Shown here: positions 1-9,881 of the stretch, piece after piece
Layout of the letters: every line of letters begins with the position of its first letter
How positions within the stretch are numbered: the first letter of the stretch is position 1
Assembly (NCBI GenBank): GCA_024402135.1
Contig: JAKSJN010000002.1
Coordinates: 62,001 to 126,000, forward strand
Length of the DNA: 64,000 nt
Reading direction: 5' to 3'
Origin: Bacteroidales bacterium
Lineage (GTDB): Bacteria; Bacteroidota; Bacteroidia; Bacteroidales; UBA932
Position numbers and translations under genes: made by a program
Notes under the pieces: generated by a model
Databases searched by the model: none
Seen by the model: only the letters and a program-made list of their open reading frames with translations
What the model was told of the DNA's origin: nothing

Positions 1-1338
1 AATGGTGTTTTGGCAGCAGCCGGTGTTGAATGTGCAAAGAACGTTGAGTCTACTCAGTGGACAAAATATCGTGCAACGAATGCCCATGGCTTCGCTGCCG
101 AGGATTTCAATGCCCTTATTGACAGGCTTTGTGGCAAGCAGGTCGACAAAGTAGGACTCAACAACGAACTCAACGGTGCTGACCGCATCATCAACGGCGT
201 TAAGATACAGTCTAAATACTGTAGCTCCGCATATGAGTCGGTGAAGAAGGCTTTCGATGCCAACGGCGCCTATAGGTACCCTGGTATGAAGTTAGAAGTG
301 CCAAAGGGACAAGGTGAGGATGCCATACGCTATATGGAGGAGAGGATCCGCAATGGACAGGTCCCTGGCGTATCAGATCCTTCCATGGCTAAGGACATGG
401 TCATCGAGGGCAAGTGTACCTACGAGCAGGCGCTGAAGATTGCCAAGGCCGGCAATCTTGAATCCATCAAGTTTGATGCTCTCAATCAGATGGTCACTTG
501 CGCATGTGTTGCCGGTTTCACTTTTGTCATAGGATATGCCACATCAAGATTGGGCGGTCTTACTAGGGAAGCCGCTCTGCGGCAGTCAGCCAAGCAGGCT
601 CTTAAGACCGGAGCCACTACAATGGCCGCAGGTGTAGCTGTACAGCAGTTGCTCCGAACTCAGGTTGGACGTAATATGGCTGCAGGAGCTACTTATGTCG
701 CAAGGAGAGGAGTTGACACTGTTTGTCGCACTCAGGTTGGCAGAGCAGTAGTTGAGAAGATGATGACGGGCGTACTCGGTAAGGCCGTTACTCAGGGTGC
801 TGCGAGGAATGCTTGCATCAAGATGCTTCGCTCAAACTTCTTCACAAGCGCTGCGGTGACAGTGGCAACCACTGTTCCTGATGTCGTGAAAGCTTGCCGT
901 GGAAAGAAATCCTGGAAGCAGGTTGGCAAAAATGCTGCTGTCAATGTCACCGGCGTTGGAGCTGGCAGCGCTGGGTGGTGGGCCGGAGCCGCTGCAGGTT
1001 CTTGCGTATGCCCTGGCATAGGAACAGTTGTAGGAGGACTTATCGGGGCTATTGGTGGTGGTGTAGCTGGGTCTATTGGAGCCAAAAAAGCATTGGACCA
1101 TTTCGTCGATGATGATTCAAAGGTATGTATGGGATGTATCGAGGATTCTATCCTTAACCTGTGCGACCAATACGGGACTTCAGAGGATGACCTTGAACGC
1201 ATTCTGAGAAAGATCAAGTCATCTAATGTCTTTAATGAGTCTTTCTTCGAGTCAATGTATAGGGCCGGAGGACAGTCACATCTCAAGACGTCGATGACTT
1301 CTTTCGCGACAGGAAAACTACAGGCATATTTTGCCTAA
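1..1338 (+). CDS. Glycine-zipper membrane protein, 5'-truncated, function unknown
   Basis: The reading frame is open from the first base, so the N-terminus lies outside the window and the TTG at position 10 is probably not the start. About 445 residues are visible. The first ~150 are soluble and charged. The rest is rich in Ala/Gly with several hydrophobic stretches, including a classical glycine zipper near residues 330-360 (repeated GxxxG around VVGGLIGAIGGGVAG). Such segments pack membrane helices tightly and occur in pore-forming or membrane-associated proteins. A soluble C-terminal tail of ~80 residues with a CxxC-like pair (VCMGCIED) follows. I do not recognise a named family. It sits 287 bp upstream of a membrane protein with a similar Ala/Gly-rich core, so the two may be functionally linked, but a hairpin separates them. 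Confidence 0.7.
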   Translation, partial: NGVLAAAGVECAKNVESTQWTKYRATNAHGFAAEDFNALIDRLCGKQVDKVGLNNELNGADRIINGVKIQSKYCSSAYESVKKAFDANGAYRYPGMKLEVPKGQGEDAIRYMEERIRNGQVPGVSDPSMAKDMVIEGKCTYEQALKIAKAGNLESIKFDALNQMVTCACVAGFTFVIGYATSRLGGLTREAALRQSAKQALKTGATTMAAGVAVQQLLRTQVGRNMAAGATYVARRGVDTVCRTQVGRAVVEKMMTGVLGKAVTQGAARNACIKMLRSNFFTSAAVTVATTVPDVVKACRGKKSWKQVGKNAAVNVTGVGAGSAGWWAGAAAGSCVCPGIGTVVGGLIGAIGGGVAGSIGAKKALDHFVDDDSKVCMGCIEDSILNLCDQYGTSEDDLERILRKIKSSNVFNESFFESMYRAGGQSHLKTSMTSFATGKLQAYFA

Positions 1339-1439: not shown

Positions 1440-1472
1440 GGATATCAGCAGAAATAAAATCTGCTGATATCC
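1440..1472 (+). terminator. 13-bp inverted repeat downstream of the glycine-zipper gene
   Basis: A perfect 12-13 bp stem (arms GATATCAGCAGA and TCTGCTGATATC) with a 7-nt A-rich loop lies about 100 bp after the stop codon. It is stable enough to act as a terminator, although no T-run follows, so it could also be an RNA-stability or protein-binding element. The rest of the 1339-1625 gap is AT-rich, with no other feature seen until the promoter near 1575. Confidence 0.4.
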
Positions 1473-1574: not shown

Positions 1575-1617
1575 TTTGCATACAATAAAAATTCATAACT
1601 TTGTCATATATAGGAGG
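1575..1617 (+). promoter_or_regulatory. Predicted Bacteroidota promoter plus strong Shine-Dalgarno for the three-gene operon
   Basis: TAACTTTG at 1596-1603 fits the -7 consensus TAnnTTTG, with TTTG at 1575-1578 as the -33 element (17 bp between them, slightly short). AGGAGG at 1612-1617 stands 8 nt before the ATG at 1626. A full Shine-Dalgarno is uncommon in this phylum, which mostly relies on A-rich leaders. Its presence here supports strong or foreign-type translation initiation. Confidence 0.5.
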
Positions 1618-1625
1618 ATTGTATT

Positions 1626-2459
1626 ATGAGTCTTTTCAATGGCACAGAAAAGAAAGAAGCTATCAAGAGATTCGAGGCTGCCAAGGATCACTATGAAGAA
1701 GCTAGCAAAGTCATCAACCAGGAGGTCGTTGAGTTATATACGACCAGAAAGGAAGGAGCTGAATTAGTTAAACAGACGGAGGACTTACTTAAAAGTGTTT
1801 CAGGCATTAACCCGGATTTCATAATCAGTGTTGCTGACGCTCGTGCTTCCATCAGTTTTTTCCTCGATTCGATGGAAACAGAAGAAGCAGCTTTAGCGAA
1901 CGGATCTTCTGGGAAAGCCGTTGGAGCCGCGGCTCTCGGCACAGCCGCAGGGGCAGCTATTGCAACATTCGGGGCATCTACTGCTATGGCTGTCGTAACA
2001 ACATTTGGTACGGCCGCTACTGGTACTGCGATATCTGCTTTGTCTGGCGCAGCTGCGACTAATGCAGCTTTAGCTGTATTGGGGGGTGGCGCACTTGCTG
2101 CTGGGGGCGGAGGTATCGCTGCTGGAAGTGCAGTGCTCGCCGCTATTCCTGTAATCGGCTGGACTATTGGTGGTGCCGCTGCAGTTGGGGGCGGAATTCT
2201 GGTGGCTAAGAAGAATAAGAAGTGTGCTGACGAAGCGAACCATAAGGCATCTGAATTGGAATCGTCAACAAGTTCAATCAAAGCCGTGACGTACAAAATC
2301 AGTGCTTGTAATTCAAAACTGGCCAAGGCCATAAAGAAACTTGGCAAAAGAGTTGAAAGCGAGGCGAAACCTTCTTTTACTGACATCGAGTTGATTGATA
2401 TCACAAGAACTGTCGATACTATCTGCGAATTGATTAACGAAAAATTCCCTCTTCAATAA
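1626..2459 (+). CDS. Membrane protein: coiled-coil flanks around an Ala/Gly-rich hydrophobic core
   Basis: A 277-residue protein with three parts. Residues ~1-95 are charged and helical with coiled-coil character. Residues ~98-192 are an almost uninterrupted Ala/Gly-rich hydrophobic region long enough for three or four helices. Residues ~195-277 are again charged and helical. It has no signal peptide. The layout resembles helical pore-forming proteins or membrane effectors in which a hydrophobic hairpin is held between amphipathic helices, but no named family is recognised. The start is set by a perfect AGGAGG 8 nt upstream. The GHKL-ATPase gene begins only 3 nt after the stop, so the two are co-transcribed. 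I infer a membrane effector or membrane-anchored partner of the signalling proteins downstream. Confidence 0.75.
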   Translation: MSLFNGTEKKEAIKRFEAAKDHYEEASKVINQEVVELYTTRKEGAELVKQTEDLLKSVSGINPDFIISVADARASISFFLDSMETEEAALANGSSGKAVGAAALGTAAGAAIATFGASTAMAVVTTFGTAATGTAISALSGAAATNAALAVLGGGALAAGGGGIAAGSAVLAAIPVIGWTIGGAAAVGGGILVAKKNKKCADEANHKASELESSTSSIKAVTYKISACNSKLAKAIKKLGKRVESEAKPSFTDIELIDITRTVDTICELINEKFPLQ

Positions 2460-2462
2460 GTC

Positions 2463-4568
2463 ATGGATACTGAGTCTCTCCGAGATATTTCATGGAAGTT
2501 CCTTTATGATTTATACTGCGAGGAAATAAATCGGTATATAACATCTGACATAAGCAGCCGATTAAGAGGGGGCAAATATCTGTCTCAAGTAAAAAGTGCT
2601 GATGACATCATAGATACAATTGCAAGATTGTGTCATAAGCCCAAAGAATACTTCCATTACCATAATCTTCTTGAATACCTTCTAGGAGTCTCTAATTCGG
2701 AGCCCGAGAAGTCTAAAGATAATGGTTATATAACAAAACTCGAGGTTAATTTCATCGGCTATTTCCAAAATGCCATATTGAATAATCGACGTTCCTCAAA
2801 CGTTAGAACAAAACTTTTTAATGTTGAGCCATTGATGGATACATATTGCCTTTGGTTGTCAACGGGAATAGTATGGAAAGATTGGTTCATATTGTCAGAG
2901 TGGGTAATTGCCGACAAGAAAAAGGAGACATTAGAGGACTTTCGGAAAGCATTAGTATCTGCATTTTCATCATGGTCAGGTGTCGGTAGCTGGTTTTATT
3001 CATATAAGACAGAGAAGCATCGAAAGGTTGTATTACATGTCTTATGCCTTTTCCTCATAATGTTAAGATATGAGTATGTATTATCTGAAAACATAGTGCA
3101 ATACCTTGGCCTAATGTATTCAGGTCGATATCCAGTAATGTATTCCGAACGATATCCAGATGGAGCCTCTTTGGGCGGAAGATACTTGACCGCAGAGGTA
3201 TTGAAGGCGAATCCGATAGTTGAAGAAGTTGACAAGAAAATATTCGATGAGCTTGAATTCTTCAAGCGACCATCAAATATGCCAGGCTGCGAATTCCTTC
3301 CATTTATTAAAAGAAAACTAACATCTGTCGAGAGTCTGAATTATTGCATGGAACGATTTTCCGATTCGTATGACAAGGTAAAAGTCGGATCTCATGCAAA
3401 TTATCGCGATATTGAAATCCTTCTAAAACCAGGGAAAAAGCGTTTACTTGTTGACTATGAGTTTCCTTACACTACCGTAAGGTGGCAAGATACATTTCTT
3501 CCTGTAAGAAACGTAAGCCAAGAGGATTCGACAGCCATTAATTTAGTTAACAGATTATATATCAATATACTTTTTGATAATCTGCTGCAACAGAAGATAG
3601 AAGAAGAAAGAATCACAATTGATAATCTGTCAGAAGATAAAAATCAAGAAATTGAGAAAAGGAAACAATCTCTTGAAAACAAGTCAAAGATGTGGAGTGC
3701 TTACGCGAAAAACAGGTTCTTTGAAAAAGTGCCTGACTATATCAAGTACGACTACATACAAGTTCTTCCAAACCCTGTCAATGAGCAGAGTATAGTTCAT
3801 AAGTATAATTCTCATCTTGAGATAGGAGGACAGTTCTTCCCTGTTATTTCTAAAGAAGAAATAATGGCTAACAGGGAAGTTGAACATATGTTCGAGCAGT
3901 TTAGACATGGATTAAAATTCCGAAGCATAATACCTGAAAATGCGGCATTGATCTACGAGAAATTATCTTCTGATAGTGAACTTCGCGAGAAAGCTTTTTC
4001 AATACAGTTCCTATCAACTGTAATAAATTCTCAGATCTCATCGTATGCCAATCCTAATATGAAGGAGAAAAAAGAATTATTTTCTTTATCTGAGGTAATT
4101 GATGCATATGTTAGAAGCGCCAAAACTCTTCACCCTGACATTGTCTTTACTAAGAACGATTCCTCATTGGTGGATTTCCGTTCAAACCTTATGATGAATA
4201 GACCACAGTTAATTGTCCTTATTCATACTTTGGTGGATAATGCTATTGAGCATGGCTTCAAAGATCTGGATATCAAAGATAAAAGAATCCATTTTACGCT
4301 TGACCGGATTCATATAAATAATCCGGAAATTGATGAGGAGGACGATTATTTGCGGATGTCAGTATGCAATAATGGAAAACCTTTTGCCCCGGATTTTACA
4401 CTCGGCAAGTATAAGTCGAATCATGCATTTTCAGGCCCGACAGGGCACACGGGAATAGGAGGTTATCAAGTGAACAGGATAGCGGTTACCAATGGGGGCT
4501 TCGTCAATATCTTGAGCACAGAAGAATGGCCTGTAATTATTGAAATTTATTTTAAACCATATGAGTAG
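2463..4568 (+). CDS. GHKL (histidine-kinase-type) ATPase signalling protein
   Basis: 701 residues. The first ~370 are helical without a recognised domain, with no transmembrane segment or signal peptide. A coiled coil at ~375-412 (KIEEERITIDNLSEDKNQEI) follows. A helical segment with FEQFRHGLKFRS near 475-485 may be the dimerisation region, its His being a possible phosphoacceptor. The C-terminal ~140 residues form a HATPase_c fold, with an N-box (LVDNAIEHGF, ~590) and a glycine-rich lid (GPTGHTGIGGYQVN, ~660). This is a cytosolic sensor-kinase-like protein with a large unknown sensor region, not an ordinary membrane histidine kinase. It starts 3 nt after the membrane protein and overlaps the receiver-like gene by 8 nt. 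The ATPase assignment is secure; kinase activity is inference. Confidence 0.85.
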   Translation: MDTESLRDISWKFLYDLYCEEINRYITSDISSRLRGGKYLSQVKSADDIIDTIARLCHKPKEYFHYHNLLEYLLGVSNSEPEKSKDNGYITKLEVNFIGYFQNAILNNRRSSNVRTKLFNVEPLMDTYCLWLSTGIVWKDWFILSEWVIADKKKETLEDFRKALVSAFSSWSGVGSWFYSYKTEKHRKVVLHVLCLFLIMLRYEYVLSENIVQYLGLMYSGRYPVMYSERYPDGASLGGRYLTAEVLKANPIVEEVDKKIFDELEFFKRPSNMPGCEFLPFIKRKLTSVESLNYCMERFSDSYDKVKVGSHANYRDIEILLKPGKKRLLVDYEFPYTTVRWQDTFLPVRNVSQEDSTAINLVNRLYINILFDNLLQQKIEEERITIDNLSEDKNQEIEKRKQSLENKSKMWSAYAKNRFFEKVPDYIKYDYIQVLPNPVNEQSIVHKYNSHLEIGGQFFPVISKEEIMANREVEHMFEQFRHGLKFRSIIPENAALIYEKLSSDSELREKAFSIQFLSTVINSQISSYANPNMKEKKELFSLSEVIDAYVRSAKTLHPDIVFTKNDSSLVDFRSNLMMNRPQLIVLIHTLVDNAIEHGFKDLDIKDKRIHFTLDRIHINNPEIDEEDDYLRMSVCNNGKPFAPDFTLGKYKSNHAFSGPTGHTGIGGYQVNRIAVTNGGFVNILSTEEWPVIIEIYFKPYE

Positions 4569-5775
4569 TAGAATATATAATATCGCATGGTGCGATGATA
4601 AGGTTGAGCAACTCGTCTCTGATTATCAAGATGCCTTTAGAGAGAATAATTGTCTCATATGCAAAAAAGCTAAGAATGCGGAAGAGCTTATTCATTTTCT
4701 GAGGAATAATCACGATAAGGTTGATGGAGTCATTGTTGATTTTAATGTGAATGAGAGGAAGGATGTCCCCACCAATGATTCTGAAATGTCCGGCTTCAGT
4801 TTGATACGCTCGAAAATTCGTGATTTTCAACCCATACCGTTTTATCTCTATTCTGCTCATTCAGCTAACGAGATTACCAATAAAATGAGTGAGGCTGGTA
4901 ATGATGTAGAAGAAGATTATTTTATGGGTGGTGAGAATTTCCAACGGTATTTTACTGTCGGACAGTTTAATCGACTTCTCGAAAAAATGTGCGAGGAGAT
5001 TGAAAAGAACCACACCCCATATTTTGACCTCCGGCAAAAATTCAGTAAAGCTTTCTATGCATTTGACCATTTCGATCTTGATTCTCATTCCTTGATAAAG
5101 ATTTTATCTTTAGCTGATGATGCTGCCATCGGAGAGGAAGTCGCCAATTCTCTCAATAATATGAGGCGGCAAATCGAAAAGATTTTTCTTACCAACTTCG
5201 TTGATAAAAAAATATTCCCTTCAGATGTACCATTGAATAAGGTGCCGTTTGTATTGACGGGCCAGCATGCTGAATACAGGACTGTTGATAGTTTCATGTC
5301 ATTTATGCCCGAAACTATGAGAAAAGCGTTCTCGTTTTTCTTGGAATTCACCCAAGATGGTTCGCATGAAAGAAGGGAGGGCCTGAGTTATCATGTGAGT
5401 GACTATTTCACAAACAACAATGACGTCCACCTCGCTCTATGCTTAGCTCATATTTGCATGGATATTGCCGTGTGGAGCTTATCATTTGAGAGTGCAGCAG
5501 GGAATAAATGCCCTTTTATTAAAGTTGGTGATTCCGCTCAATCTGTTCAATCTGCCATCGATTATAATAAAACATCTACTGTTATGATTTCTGGTGGAAA
5601 TAAATACGTCCAAATTGATGGCGAAAAATGTTTCCTTCAAGATGATCGAAATACACCACTGAAAGAAGGTGAGACCATAATTGTTAAAAAGGTTGCTCCA
5701 AATACTTCTGCAAACAAACAATTCGCAACCGCGTTCCCGAAATTTATTTCATTTAGCGACTGGGATCGTGCGTAG
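4561..5775 (+). CDS. Receiver-like domain protein with unknown C-terminal domain
   Basis: 404 residues from the ATG at 4561, which overlaps the preceding stop by 8 nt; a TTG 21 nt upstream is possible but weaker. Residues ~1-130 resemble a response-regulator receiver. The acidic pair is in AWCDDK (~9-11), the likely phosphoacceptor Asp in VIVDFNVNE (~60), and a Ser in LYSAHS (~98) replaces the usual Thr/Ser. The conserved Lys is not obvious. The remaining ~270 residues match nothing I know and show no DNA-binding helix-turn-helix, so the output is probably enzymatic or protein-protein rather than transcriptional. Together with the ATPase it forms a phosphorelay-like pair, the gene content seen in two-component-type defence systems such as Detocs. 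Confidence 0.75.
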   Translation: MSSRIYNIAWCDDKVEQLVSDYQDAFRENNCLICKKAKNAEELIHFLRNNHDKVDGVIVDFNVNERKDVPTNDSEMSGFSLIRSKIRDFQPIPFYLYSAHSANEITNKMSEAGNDVEEDYFMGGENFQRYFTVGQFNRLLEKMCEEIEKNHTPYFDLRQKFSKAFYAFDHFDLDSHSLIKILSLADDAAIGEEVANSLNNMRRQIEKIFLTNFVDKKIFPSDVPLNKVPFVLTGQHAEYRTVDSFMSFMPETMRKAFSFFLEFTQDGSHERREGLSYHVSDYFTNNNDVHLALCLAHICMDIAVWSLSFESAAGNKCPFIKVGDSAQSVQSAIDYNKTSTVMISGGNKYVQIDGEKCFLQDDRNTPLKEGETIIVKKVAPNTSANKQFATAFPKFISFSDWDRA

Positions 5776-5816
5776 AATGACAAGAGCCGAGTTTATCCTC
5801 GGCTCTTGTCATTCTA
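5773..5816. terminator. Perfect 19-bp inverted repeat, shared terminator for convergent genes
   Basis: The stop codon of the receiver-like gene is the start of a perfect palindrome: a 19-bp arm (5773-5791), a 6-nt loop TTTATC, and the matching arm (5798-5816). The genes on both sides converge on it, so it can end transcription in both directions. There is no clear T-run on the plus strand. It also marks the edge of the AT-rich segment. Confidence 0.6.
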
Positions 5817-5830
5817 TACGTCACCTGTGC

Positions 5831-6223
5831 CTATGGTTCTTGGCCGGTGTTAAGATTTCGCGCTTCGTCGAACTTGGCCTTCATCGTGGGATTCCCTCGA
5901 GTAAGCTTCTTTATCGTCAGATCCTCTGCCTTGTCGTTGGCGAGCCTGAGGTTATTCTCTGAACCAAGGAGAGCGTCCTTGATCTTCTGGAGATGGTCGA
6001 TGGACTTGTCAATCTCCTCGATGGCCTTCTGGAACTTCTCGCTGGCCAGCCTGTAGTTCCTTCCGAACTTGTCCTTGAAGTCGAGCAGCGCGTTCTCGAA
6101 GTTGGTCACGTCGATTGACTGGCTCTGGGCAATGGCAAGCTGGCGCTGGTACTCGATGCTCTTCTTGGATGCCTGCACGAGCAGGGTGATGAGCGGGACG
6201 AAGAACTGAGGGCGCACGTCACC
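5831..6223 (-). pseudogene. C-terminal fragment of a coiled-coil protein (DUF2130-like)
   Basis: About 130 residues starting at [12 protein letters not shown] and ending in a normal stop. The text is highly helical and charged ([20 protein letters not shown], then [13 protein letters not shown]) and reminds me of the C-terminus of DUF2130-type proteins; I rate that family match as tentative. No sensible N-terminus exists. Upstream in the same strand the frame runs into a different gene's coding sequence at about 6224. The only start codon is a GTG at the junction. This is most simply a 3' remnant left by recombination. Confidence 0.5.
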
Positions 6224-6462
6224 CAGACAGCGATCGCACCCGTCGATTTCATGTCCGAGTAGCTATCCTTGTACAGAGAACCGAGGCTGGGGATTCCATG
6301 TGACGGATAAAAGTTACCGATGCCAAAGCCACCGAAACAGACATCCTCAAGGATCGGCCAGCCTCCCCAATTCACACTCAGGCTGAAACCGGAGTCCTCC
6401 TGAGCCTTCGCCGTGGCACCCATGACCATCACAAGTGCCAGCATTAAAACAAATCTTTTCAT
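6224..6462 (-). pseudogene. N-terminal fragment of an outer-membrane-type protein
   Basis: Starts with a good signal peptide (MKRFVLMLALVMVMGATAKAQ) followed by ~60 residues rich in Gly, aromatic residues and Ser, typical of the start of a Bacteroidota outer-membrane beta-barrel. The sensible sequence ends near ...STGAIAVW. After that the frame becomes Ser/Arg/Pro-rich nonsense, because the DNA is now coding for the coiled-coil fragment in another frame. The gene therefore keeps its start but lost most of its body. The likely cause is insertion or deletion at the island boundary. Confidence 0.6.
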
Positions 6463-6505: not shown

Positions 6506-7045
6506 TTAAGCAAGTGGCATTTCCTTCAACACGGAGCCGTCAAGACGACGAAGCCTTACGATCGTCCCGTCAATTGTTGCGAAGGTCGGCTCGTTTCCAT
6601 TCTTTGGGAAAGTGATGCTGCCCGTATTCAGGACAAGCACGTCACCGGCTCTCTCCAGCTTGTGAAGATGTGTATGGCCCTGGAAGAATGCATCGATACC
6701 TTTTGGCATATTGCTGTCATTGTACTTGTGACCATGAGTCAGGAATACACGCTTTCCGTCGACAACAAGCAGCGCATAGTCGCCCATGCATGGAAAGTCC
6801 AGCAGCATCTGGTCAACCTCGGAATCGCAATTGCCTCGGATTGCAACGATATGGTCCGTATGCATGTTCAGCAGCGCTGCGATACCGGGAGCATCCAATC
6901 CATCCGGAACGCCATTGCGCGGTCCATAATTCAGGATATCGCCGAGAATCACAAGCATATCGTAACCGTTGCTCTCGTAGAAATCCATTACTTCCCTGAG
7001 TCTGGGCAACGATCCGTGAATGTCCGATAGTATGAGATAATTCAT
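6506..7045 (-). CDS. yfcE: Phosphodiesterase, YfcE/MJ0936 family
   Basis: 179 residues, the normal size for this family of small cytosolic metallophosphoesterases that hydrolyse phosphodiesters with Mn2+ or similar metals. All metal-binding blocks are visible: SDIHG (7-11), GDILNYGPR (~36), RGNCD (~72), THGHK (~104) and QGHTH (~122). The physiological substrate is not known for the family. The gene is transcribed away from the Smr-protein gene, with a CAAAGGTA (minus-strand TACCTTTG) promoter element about 20 nt upstream of its start. Confidence 0.9.
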   Translation of the reverse strand: MNYLILSDIHGSLPRLREVMDFYESNGYDMLVILGDILNYGPRNGVPDGLDAPGIAALLNMHTDHIVAIRGNCDSEVDQMLLDFPCMGDYALLVVDGKRVFLTHGHKYNDSNMPKGIDAFFQGHTHLHKLERAGDVLVLNTGSITFPKNGNEPTFATIDGTIVRLRRLDGSVLKEMPLA

Positions 7046-9802: not shown

Positions 9803-9834
9803 ATTGACTTTCTATCTTGGAAATATTATATTTG
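9803..9834 (+). promoter_or_regulatory. Predicted promoter of the isomerase gene
   Basis: TATATTTG at 9827-9834 with ATTGA at 9803-9807 about 19 bp upstream fits the TTTG/TAnnTTTG spacing well. It gives a ~40-nt A-rich leader ending in AACAACAAAA before the ATG at 9882, typical of highly expressed Bacteroidota genes. Confidence 0.5.
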
Positions 9835-9881
9835 AACAGAATATAAGACAACATATTAACTATTTTTTAATAACAACAAAA

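What the first reader, a model, noticed from the sequence alone, without database searches (positions are those of the whole stretch)
1626..5775. Three-gene operon pairing a membrane-core protein with a GHKL ATPase and a receiver-like protein: candidate undescribed (defence-type) system
Seen: tight spacing (3-nt gap, then 8-nt overlap), a coiled-coil/hydrophobic-core protein, a cytosolic ATPase with N- and G-box and a large unknown sensor part, and a receiver-like protein with no DNA-binding output. Known: two-component-type defence systems (for example Detocs) use a cytosolic sensor kinase, a receiver and a cell-killing effector, and membrane-disrupting effectors are common. Inference: a phosphorelay-like sensor releases a membrane effector, possibly with the glycine-zipper gene upstream as a second one. 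The AT-rich context and the insertion scar at its edge fit an accessory island.
Basis: partly seen in the sequence, partly recalled or inferred. Interest (0 to 1): 0.75.

Follow-up and report, generated by a model that had tools for sequence, protein, structure and literature searches.

The report
Kinase-receiver pair embedded in defence loci
A bacterium carries a two-protein signalling switch whose relatives often sit inside anti-virus gene clusters, here next to a membrane-protein gene already listed as a possible phage-defence gene; the pair looks like a reusable defence alarm, not part of a fixed three-gene system.

Summary
The three genes are real and tightly packed: A 1626-2459, B 2463-4568, C 4561-5775, ending at a strong hairpin. 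The trio is not a recurrent unit. A belongs to PADLOC's phage-defence candidate family PDC-M09A (E 8e-68). B and C form the true unit: a histidine kinase (His482, GHKL domain) and a receiver protein (Asp60) whose remaining helical domain carries an invariant Arg202 and His269 and no recognised DNA-binding family.

The B-C pair lies side by side in 27 other fetched loci: 22 have a WYL regulator, 12 type I restriction-modification genes, one type III CRISPR genes. In 10 of 13 relatives scanned the kinase's sensor half is an N6-methyltransferase; in the window it has no detectable match. A is in none of those 27 loci, and neither B nor C is in six loci of other A homologues. The closest published kind, HEF_HK/Response_reg_2, is not homologous at profile level.

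Best reading: a defence-embedded phosphorelay with exchangeable sensors, sharing an island with a PDC-M09-like cassette. Defence function and output are inferred. Warning sign: the receiver's usual lysine is valine here.

The parts
1..1338 (+). Upstream glycine-zipper protein (3' part; its ATG lies 21 bases before the window). Weak, partial match to PDC-M09B; by eye an N-terminal nuclease-like stretch (ADRI...QSKY) and a Gly-rich core
1440..1472 (.). Perfect 13-bp hairpin (dG -21.5) between the upstream gene and A
1596..1603 (+). TAACTTTG, matching the Bacteroides -7 box TANNTTTG (consensus recalled); possible own promoter of A-B-C
1626..2459 (+). Gene A: Gly/Ala-rich core protein, PDC-M09A family
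   Evidence: (E 8.1e-68)
2463..4568 (+). Gene B: histidine kinase, apparently soluble; residues 1-470 unidentified (no match to the methyltransferase half of relatives), candidate phospho-His482 (codon 3906-3908), GHKL domain 581-687
4561..5775 (+). Gene C: receiver domain (residues 1-150; Asp12, Asp13, Asp60), helical domain (153-312) with invariant Arg202 and His269, beta-rich tail (319-404); no recognised DNA-binding family
5774..5815 (.). 18-bp stem, 6-nt loop hairpin (dG -32.2) at the end of C; terminator-like
5831..6217 (-). DUF2130 C-terminal fragment at the island's right edge; a longer paralogue (72% identity, 453-aa open frame) exists elsewhere in the genome

Best explanation
B and C are a two-component pair of a family that often lives inside defence loci. 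B's N-terminal half senses an infection cue or the state of the neighbouring defence system. B then autophosphorylates His482 through its GHKL domain and passes the phosphate to Asp60 of C. C has no recognised DNA-binding domain; its helical domain with invariant Arg202 and His269 is the likely output, probably enzymatic or toxic (HEPN-like nuclease suspected, not shown). In the window this pair is probably transcribed with A, a PDC-M09A protein from a separate cassette that may serve as an extra effector. Shown: gene order, domains, conserved residues, recurrence and neighbourhoods of B-C. Inferred: phosphotransfer, the cue, the output, and any functional link between A and B-C.
For: Adjacency: of 16 loci found by B alone, 14 have C next to the kinase, one is cut by the contig end (L027) and one is an unrelated kinase without C (L045). 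All 8 fetched loci found by the C profile alone have the kinase next to C; in the short loci of the 3 remaining weak hits neither profile matches. All 5 named-genome loci have the pair. A kinase-only profile confirms the kinase in all 27 (E 7.7e-12 or better). Context of the 27: WYL gene in the fetched stretch in 22, type I R-M genes in 12, type III CRISPR genes in 1. Asp13, Asp60, Arg202 and His269 are invariant in the 26 C proteins aligned in A1, A6 and A8, window included; the truncated L023 and split L030 copies were not aligned. His482 lies 111 residues before the N-box, as the SHxLG-type His does in five close relatives (109-114). B and C overlap by 8 nt.
Against: The receiver Lys is Val133 in the window copy, where its aligned relatives have Lys (that this Lys matters is recalled). 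His269 lies in a loop modelled with pLDDT under 50 (266-279). The HEPN idea has no database support: no Pfam family covers the helical domain in 18 members at E <= 2 (isolated chance-like hits aside). B's sensor half is unidentified and its model poor (mean pLDDT 39.8). In more distant relatives the candidate His lies 126-156 residues before the N-box, so its equivalence with His482 is not certain. PADLOC has no model matching B. In 14 of 27 loci neither type I R-M nor CRISPR genes were tagged, so the defence link there rests on the WYL gene or on nothing.
Confidence: 0.5

Rival explanations
1. Dedicated three-gene system: B and C release A, a membrane-disrupting effector, on infection.
For: 3-nt gap A-B, 8-nt overlap B-C, one possible promoter box and one terminator-like hairpin around all three; A is in a defence-candidate family. 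In another species of the same genus (L047) other genes, one SPFH-like by eye, occupy the place upstream of B, so a variable partner gene is thinkable.
Against: A profile of A matches nothing in the 27 other B-C loci; kinase and C profiles match nothing in six loci of other M09A homologues. A's base composition differs from B and C.
Confidence: 0.25
2. Regulator only: C acts on RNA or protein to control expression of the neighbouring defence genes, without killing.
For: WYL regulators accompany 22 of 27 pairs; by eye, several C proteins end in a G-x-G-T-F tail resembling OB-fold RNA-binding domains; EutV bound to RNA is among the fold hits, probably through the receiver.
Against: No RNA-binding family was matched at E <= 2. 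The invariant Arg/His pair is outside the tail and present where the tail is missing.
Confidence: 0.2
3. A belongs with the upstream protein as a PDC-M09 pair and only abuts an unrelated B-C pair.
For: Upstream gene has a weak PDC-M09B match; another genome (L086) has an A homologue beside a homologue of the upstream gene (E 5.6e-5); A resembles the upstream cassette, not B-C, in GC.
Against: A is separated from the upstream gene by 287 bp, a hairpin and its own promoter-like box, yet only 3 nt from B. The island's shared promoter block is not in front of A. Five of the six other M09A loci show no upstream-gene homologue.
Confidence: 0.4
4. Decaying module: the window copy has lost receiver switching and is no longer functional.
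For: Val133 in place of the usual Lys; gene fragments at both island edges.
Against: All three frames are intact, and Asp12/13/60, Arg202, His269, His482 and the GHKL glycines are kept.
Confidence: 0.1

Closest known systems
HEF_HK (PF19191) / Response_reg_2 (PF19192) two-component-like pair linked to R-M systems (PMC8011034)
   Same: Kinase-like and receiver-like neighbours located beside restriction-modification genes; function unproven.
   Different: Different families: no PF19191 hit in 14 B proteins at E <= 0.01, no PF19192 hit in 18 C proteins at E <= 2; my profiles do not hit two such loci at E <= 10. There a long kinase-like protein beginning like a MORC-type ATPase lies beside a C5-methylase-like gene (by eye); here the kinase carries an N6-methyltransferase or other sensor and the receiver an Arg/His helical domain.
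PDC-M09 (PADLOC phage-defence candidate)
   Same: Gene A is a strong M09A match; the upstream gene a weak, partial M09B match.
   Different: Only a candidate system. B and C match no M09 model.
Detocs (DtcABC; recalled, not read)
   Same: Kinase, receiver and a separate possible effector.
   Different: No TPR and no nucleosidase found among the proteins scanned; the receiver here carries its own extra domain.
Type I R-M methyltransferase and specificity subunits
   Same: Sensor half of 10 of 13 B relatives matches N6_Mtase; 8 of 14 B proteins match PADLOC specificity-subunit models; the A7 profile matches solved HsdM proteins.
   Different: Window B's N-terminal 470 residues have no detectable match to it (hhalign probability 0.2%).

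Membership tests
PDC-M09 | M09A protein | tested here: met
   E 8.1e-68 over residues 3-254
PDC-M09 | M09B protein nearby | tested here: inconclusive
   Upstream gene matches only profile positions 65-152 of 480, E 6.5e-5
PDC-M09 | Anti-phage activity | not testable with these tools
   Candidate only; no paper in the library names PDC-M09
HEF_HK / Response_reg_2 | PF19192 receiver | tested here: not met
   Not among the 14 families matched by 18 C members at E <= 2; no PF19192 match in G000
HEF_HK / Response_reg_2 | PF19191 kinase | tested here: not met
   Not among the 9 families matched by 14 B members at E <= 0.01; no profile hit to two PF19192 loci
Detocs | TPR-containing kinase DtcA | tested here: not met
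   No TPR family at E <= 1 in B; that DtcA has TPRs is recalled
Detocs | Nucleosidase-type effector | tested here: not met
   No such family among the neighbours scanned; other Detocs effector types are recalled to exist
Two-component system | GHKL domain and candidate phospho-His in one protein, Asp receiver in the partner | tested here: met
   His482 and N593/G-box; Asp12/13/60; receiver fold
Two-component system | Conserved receiver Lys | tested here: not met
   Val133 in the window copy
Two-component system | Phosphotransfer | not testable with these tools
   Needs bench assay
HEPN RNase | HEPN fold with R/H catalytic motif | tested here: inconclusive
   Invariant Arg202 and His269 lie 67 residues apart in a helical domain, unlike the short R-x4-6-H motif recalled for HEPN; no HEPN family matched and none in the 50 fold hits shown

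The most novel reading that the evidence does not exclude
A previously unnamed plug-in alarm of Bacteroidota: a phosphorelay whose sensor half is exchanged to fit the defence system it sits in (type I R-M, type III CRISPR, PDC-M09-like islands) and whose receiver protein carries its own killing or arresting domain, so that phosphorylation directly fires an effector instead of transcription.
Probability: 0.3. Interest if true: 0.78.

Novelty: new variant of a known kind. Interest (0 to 1): 0.55.

Why it matters
Two-component signalling is usually read as transcriptional control. A kinase-receiver pair that recurs inside unrelated defence systems, with its sensor half swapped and with a conserved domain of unknown kind on the receiver, would link phosphorelays to immunity more broadly than the pairs I know of. 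It gives concrete residues (H482, D60, R202, H269) and concrete homologues (for example in Alistipes sp. An66 and Phocaeicola faecicola) for testing whether such pairs guard restriction systems.

Tried and rejected
Three-gene unit: rejected as a recurrent unit after searching A, B and C separately. Window B as a degenerate methyltransferase: phmmer and hhalign found nothing. Membership in HEF_HK/Response_reg_2: rejected. Plasmid searches with window A, B and C: no match; with C relatives L052 and L067: three Myroides plasmid records of equal length. First genome scan with B alone: 41 candidate stretches, none confirmed. Viral-contig scan with the C alignment A4: none of 169 candidates confirmed. 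Structure of B: poor except parts of the C-terminal domain. Fold search with C: the hits shown are mostly receivers and response regulators, matched through the receiver; PorX, ranked first, covers the whole only poorly. Literature: nine searches found no description of this pair; one figure legend in PMC13092281 names HATPase and REC domains among predicted systems, which I could not resolve further.

Rows left out before counts: L053 is the same contig as L024 and is counted once. L027 (contig end) and L045 (unrelated kinase) are not among the 27. A1 omits C of L023 (truncated) and L030 (split); A2 omits L023, L027 and L045; A7 has 4 of the 5 named-genome kinases, L051's being left out (ambiguous bases); A8 has 17 of the 27 relatives. 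In one search the kinase profile also tags methyltransferase and specificity genes because full-length members built it; those tags were not counted, and the kinase-only profile replaces them. R-M tags rest on single-sequence models from these loci; L089's R-M genes rest on its public annotation. L033-L037, loci of weaker M09A matches, were fetched but only searched by phmmer. M09A's controls: 1 of 14 named control genomes rings. One genome, G701, holds both a B-C pair (L074) and an M09A homologue (L086), on different contigs.

Full report
Observation. A strong hairpin closes the unit at 5774-5815, and a TANNTTTG box ends 22 bases before A. The window starts inside the upstream glycine-rich gene, whose ATG lies 21 bases outside; I read the missing part from the same genome, where the window is G000:C12:62001-126000.

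Gene A. PADLOC's PDC-M09A model matches A at E 8.1e-68; the upstream gene matches PDC-M09B weakly and in part (E 6.5e-5). PDC families are putative candidates from a guilt-by-embedding approach, as passages of PMC12988326 say; I did not see the preprint it cites. M09A is rare: 8 of 393 genomes of the order sample and 10 of 392 of the phylum sample match at E <= 0.001, the window's own included. I fetched the six strongest other loci (L031, L032, L085-L088). None has a kinase or C homologue; one (L086) has a homologue of the upstream gene.

Genes B and C. B has a GHKL domain at residues 581-687 and a candidate phospho-His, His482, 111 residues before the N-box. In five close relatives the matching His lies 109-114 residues before it; in more distant ones 126-156. 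No transmembrane predictor was run; no obvious membrane segment is seen in B. C is a receiver followed by a helical domain and a beta-rich tail. In the 26 C proteins aligned in A1, A6 and A8, D13, D60, R202 and H269 are invariant. R202 and H269 lie outside the receiver; the loop with H269 is modelled poorly. No DNA-binding output family is matched. The window copy has Val133 where its relatives carry Lys (L044 is shifted there in A8 but has the Lys in A1).

Recurrence. Searching with B alone matched 11 of 393 genomes in the order sample and 7 of 249 in the family sample, the window's own included in both. Of the 16 other loci, 14 have a C homologue next to the kinase, one is cut by the contig end and one is a kinase outside the family. 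Searching with a C profile alone matched 12 of 392 genomes in the phylum sample, own included; I fetched the 8 best others and all 8 have the kinase next to C. In the short loci of the 3 weak hits, neither profile matches. A scan of named genomes gave five loci, all with the pair: a Bacteroidaceae MAG, a Bacteroidales MAG, Alistipes sp. An66, a Bacteroidia MAG (the contig of L024) and Phocaeicola faecicola. A Myroides odoratimimus plasmid carries it too, in the order WYL, 'N-6 DNA methylase', 'hypothetical protein', then type I R-M genes; the kinase and C profiles match there. That makes 27 distinct loci besides the window. A WYL gene lies in the fetched stretch in 22, separate type I R-M genes in 12; in L074 the pair lies between RAMP/Csm genes and a CARF-like gene (below Pfam's cut-off) and a Cas6 gene. 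In the other 14 neither was tagged; one of them (L030) has type III-like restriction genes by eye.

Exchangeable sensor. Ten of 14 B proteins match N6_Mtase, and ten match a PADLOC type I methyltransferase model. Others differ: one has an HNH match (L029 by its sequence), L074 matches only HATPase_c, and the window's N-terminal part nothing. The kinase and receiver parts are therefore the constant core.

Island. In the full genome a WYL gene, a small zinc-ribbon-like gene, an M48 peptidase and a gene with a proteasome-like N-terminus (by eye) lie upstream of the glycine-zipper gene. WYL, B and C are AT-rich (41, 37 and 39% GC); the five genes between WYL and B are at 47-51%. This fits a cassette placed between a WYL gene and its B-C pair (inference); in many relatives WYL and the kinase are direct neighbours. 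L047, from the same genus, also has other genes between them. None of the upstream genes between WYL and A was found in the 27 other loci. A promoter-like block, TGCACGGT then TANNTTTG, occurs three times in the island and nowhere else in the held 2.6-Mb genome (backward-read control: 1); the pattern was drawn from these sites, so only its restriction to the island is informative. It is not in front of A-B-C.

Published relatives. PMC8011034 (abstract, introduction and two results sections read) describes soluble kinase-like and receiver-like neighbours beside R-M systems, HEF_HK and Response_reg_2. That is the closest kind, but not the same families: no such Pfam hit in 14 B proteins (E <= 0.01) or 18 C proteins (E <= 2), and no match of my profiles to two such loci. 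Detocs is recalled only. A passage of PMC12839542 mentions Schlafen RNases fused to a minimal histidine kinase near BREX, another sign of kinases in defence contexts. My nine searches found no description of this pair; the library lacks preprints and most subscription journals.

Mechanism. Shown: the pair, its conserved residues, its exchangeable sensor and its frequent defence neighbourhoods. Inferred: B senses infection or the state of its host system, phosphorylates C, and C's Arg/His domain or the co-transcribed A stops growth. The missing lysine in C and the unidentified sensor are the main reasons for caution. I put about even odds on this reading and a quarter on a dedicated three-gene system.

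Noticed in passing
L002:8549-9757 (upstream of the window, window -1451 to -243): 402-aa protein starting Met-Thr with a proteasome/HslV-like beginning (TAIVGVLNKRAVAIAADSAMTV); the only Pfam match at E <= 0.1 is a chance-like one, so the likeness is by eye. Possibly a proteasome-type peptidase in a defence island.
   Followed up: partly
L002:6472-6505, 6564-6597, 9823-9856: Promoter-like block found three times and only in this island, two copies preceded by a GTGCAG..CTGCAC palindrome; a candidate operator of the WYL regulator.
   Followed up: partly
L074:2089-10688: A kinase-receiver pair of the same family embedded in a type III CRISPR locus, with a different sensor half.
   Followed up: partly
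L047:3500-9733: In another species of the window's genus, the pair is preceded by an SPFH-looking protein, a small membrane-type protein and a zinc-ribbon-type protein (by eye) instead of A.
   Followed up: no
L088:1816-9508: An M09A-like protein (in two overlapping frames) in a cluster with TerB-like, AAA ATPase and MotA/OmpA-like (Zorya-like by eye) genes.
   Followed up: no
L002:3767-5288: DnaB-like gene without its N-terminal part and an integrase fragment overlapping in opposite directions at the island's left edge.
   Followed up: no
window 6106-6462: Signal-peptide-bearing ORF that overlaps the DUF2130 fragment at the right edge and looks truncated.
   Followed up: no
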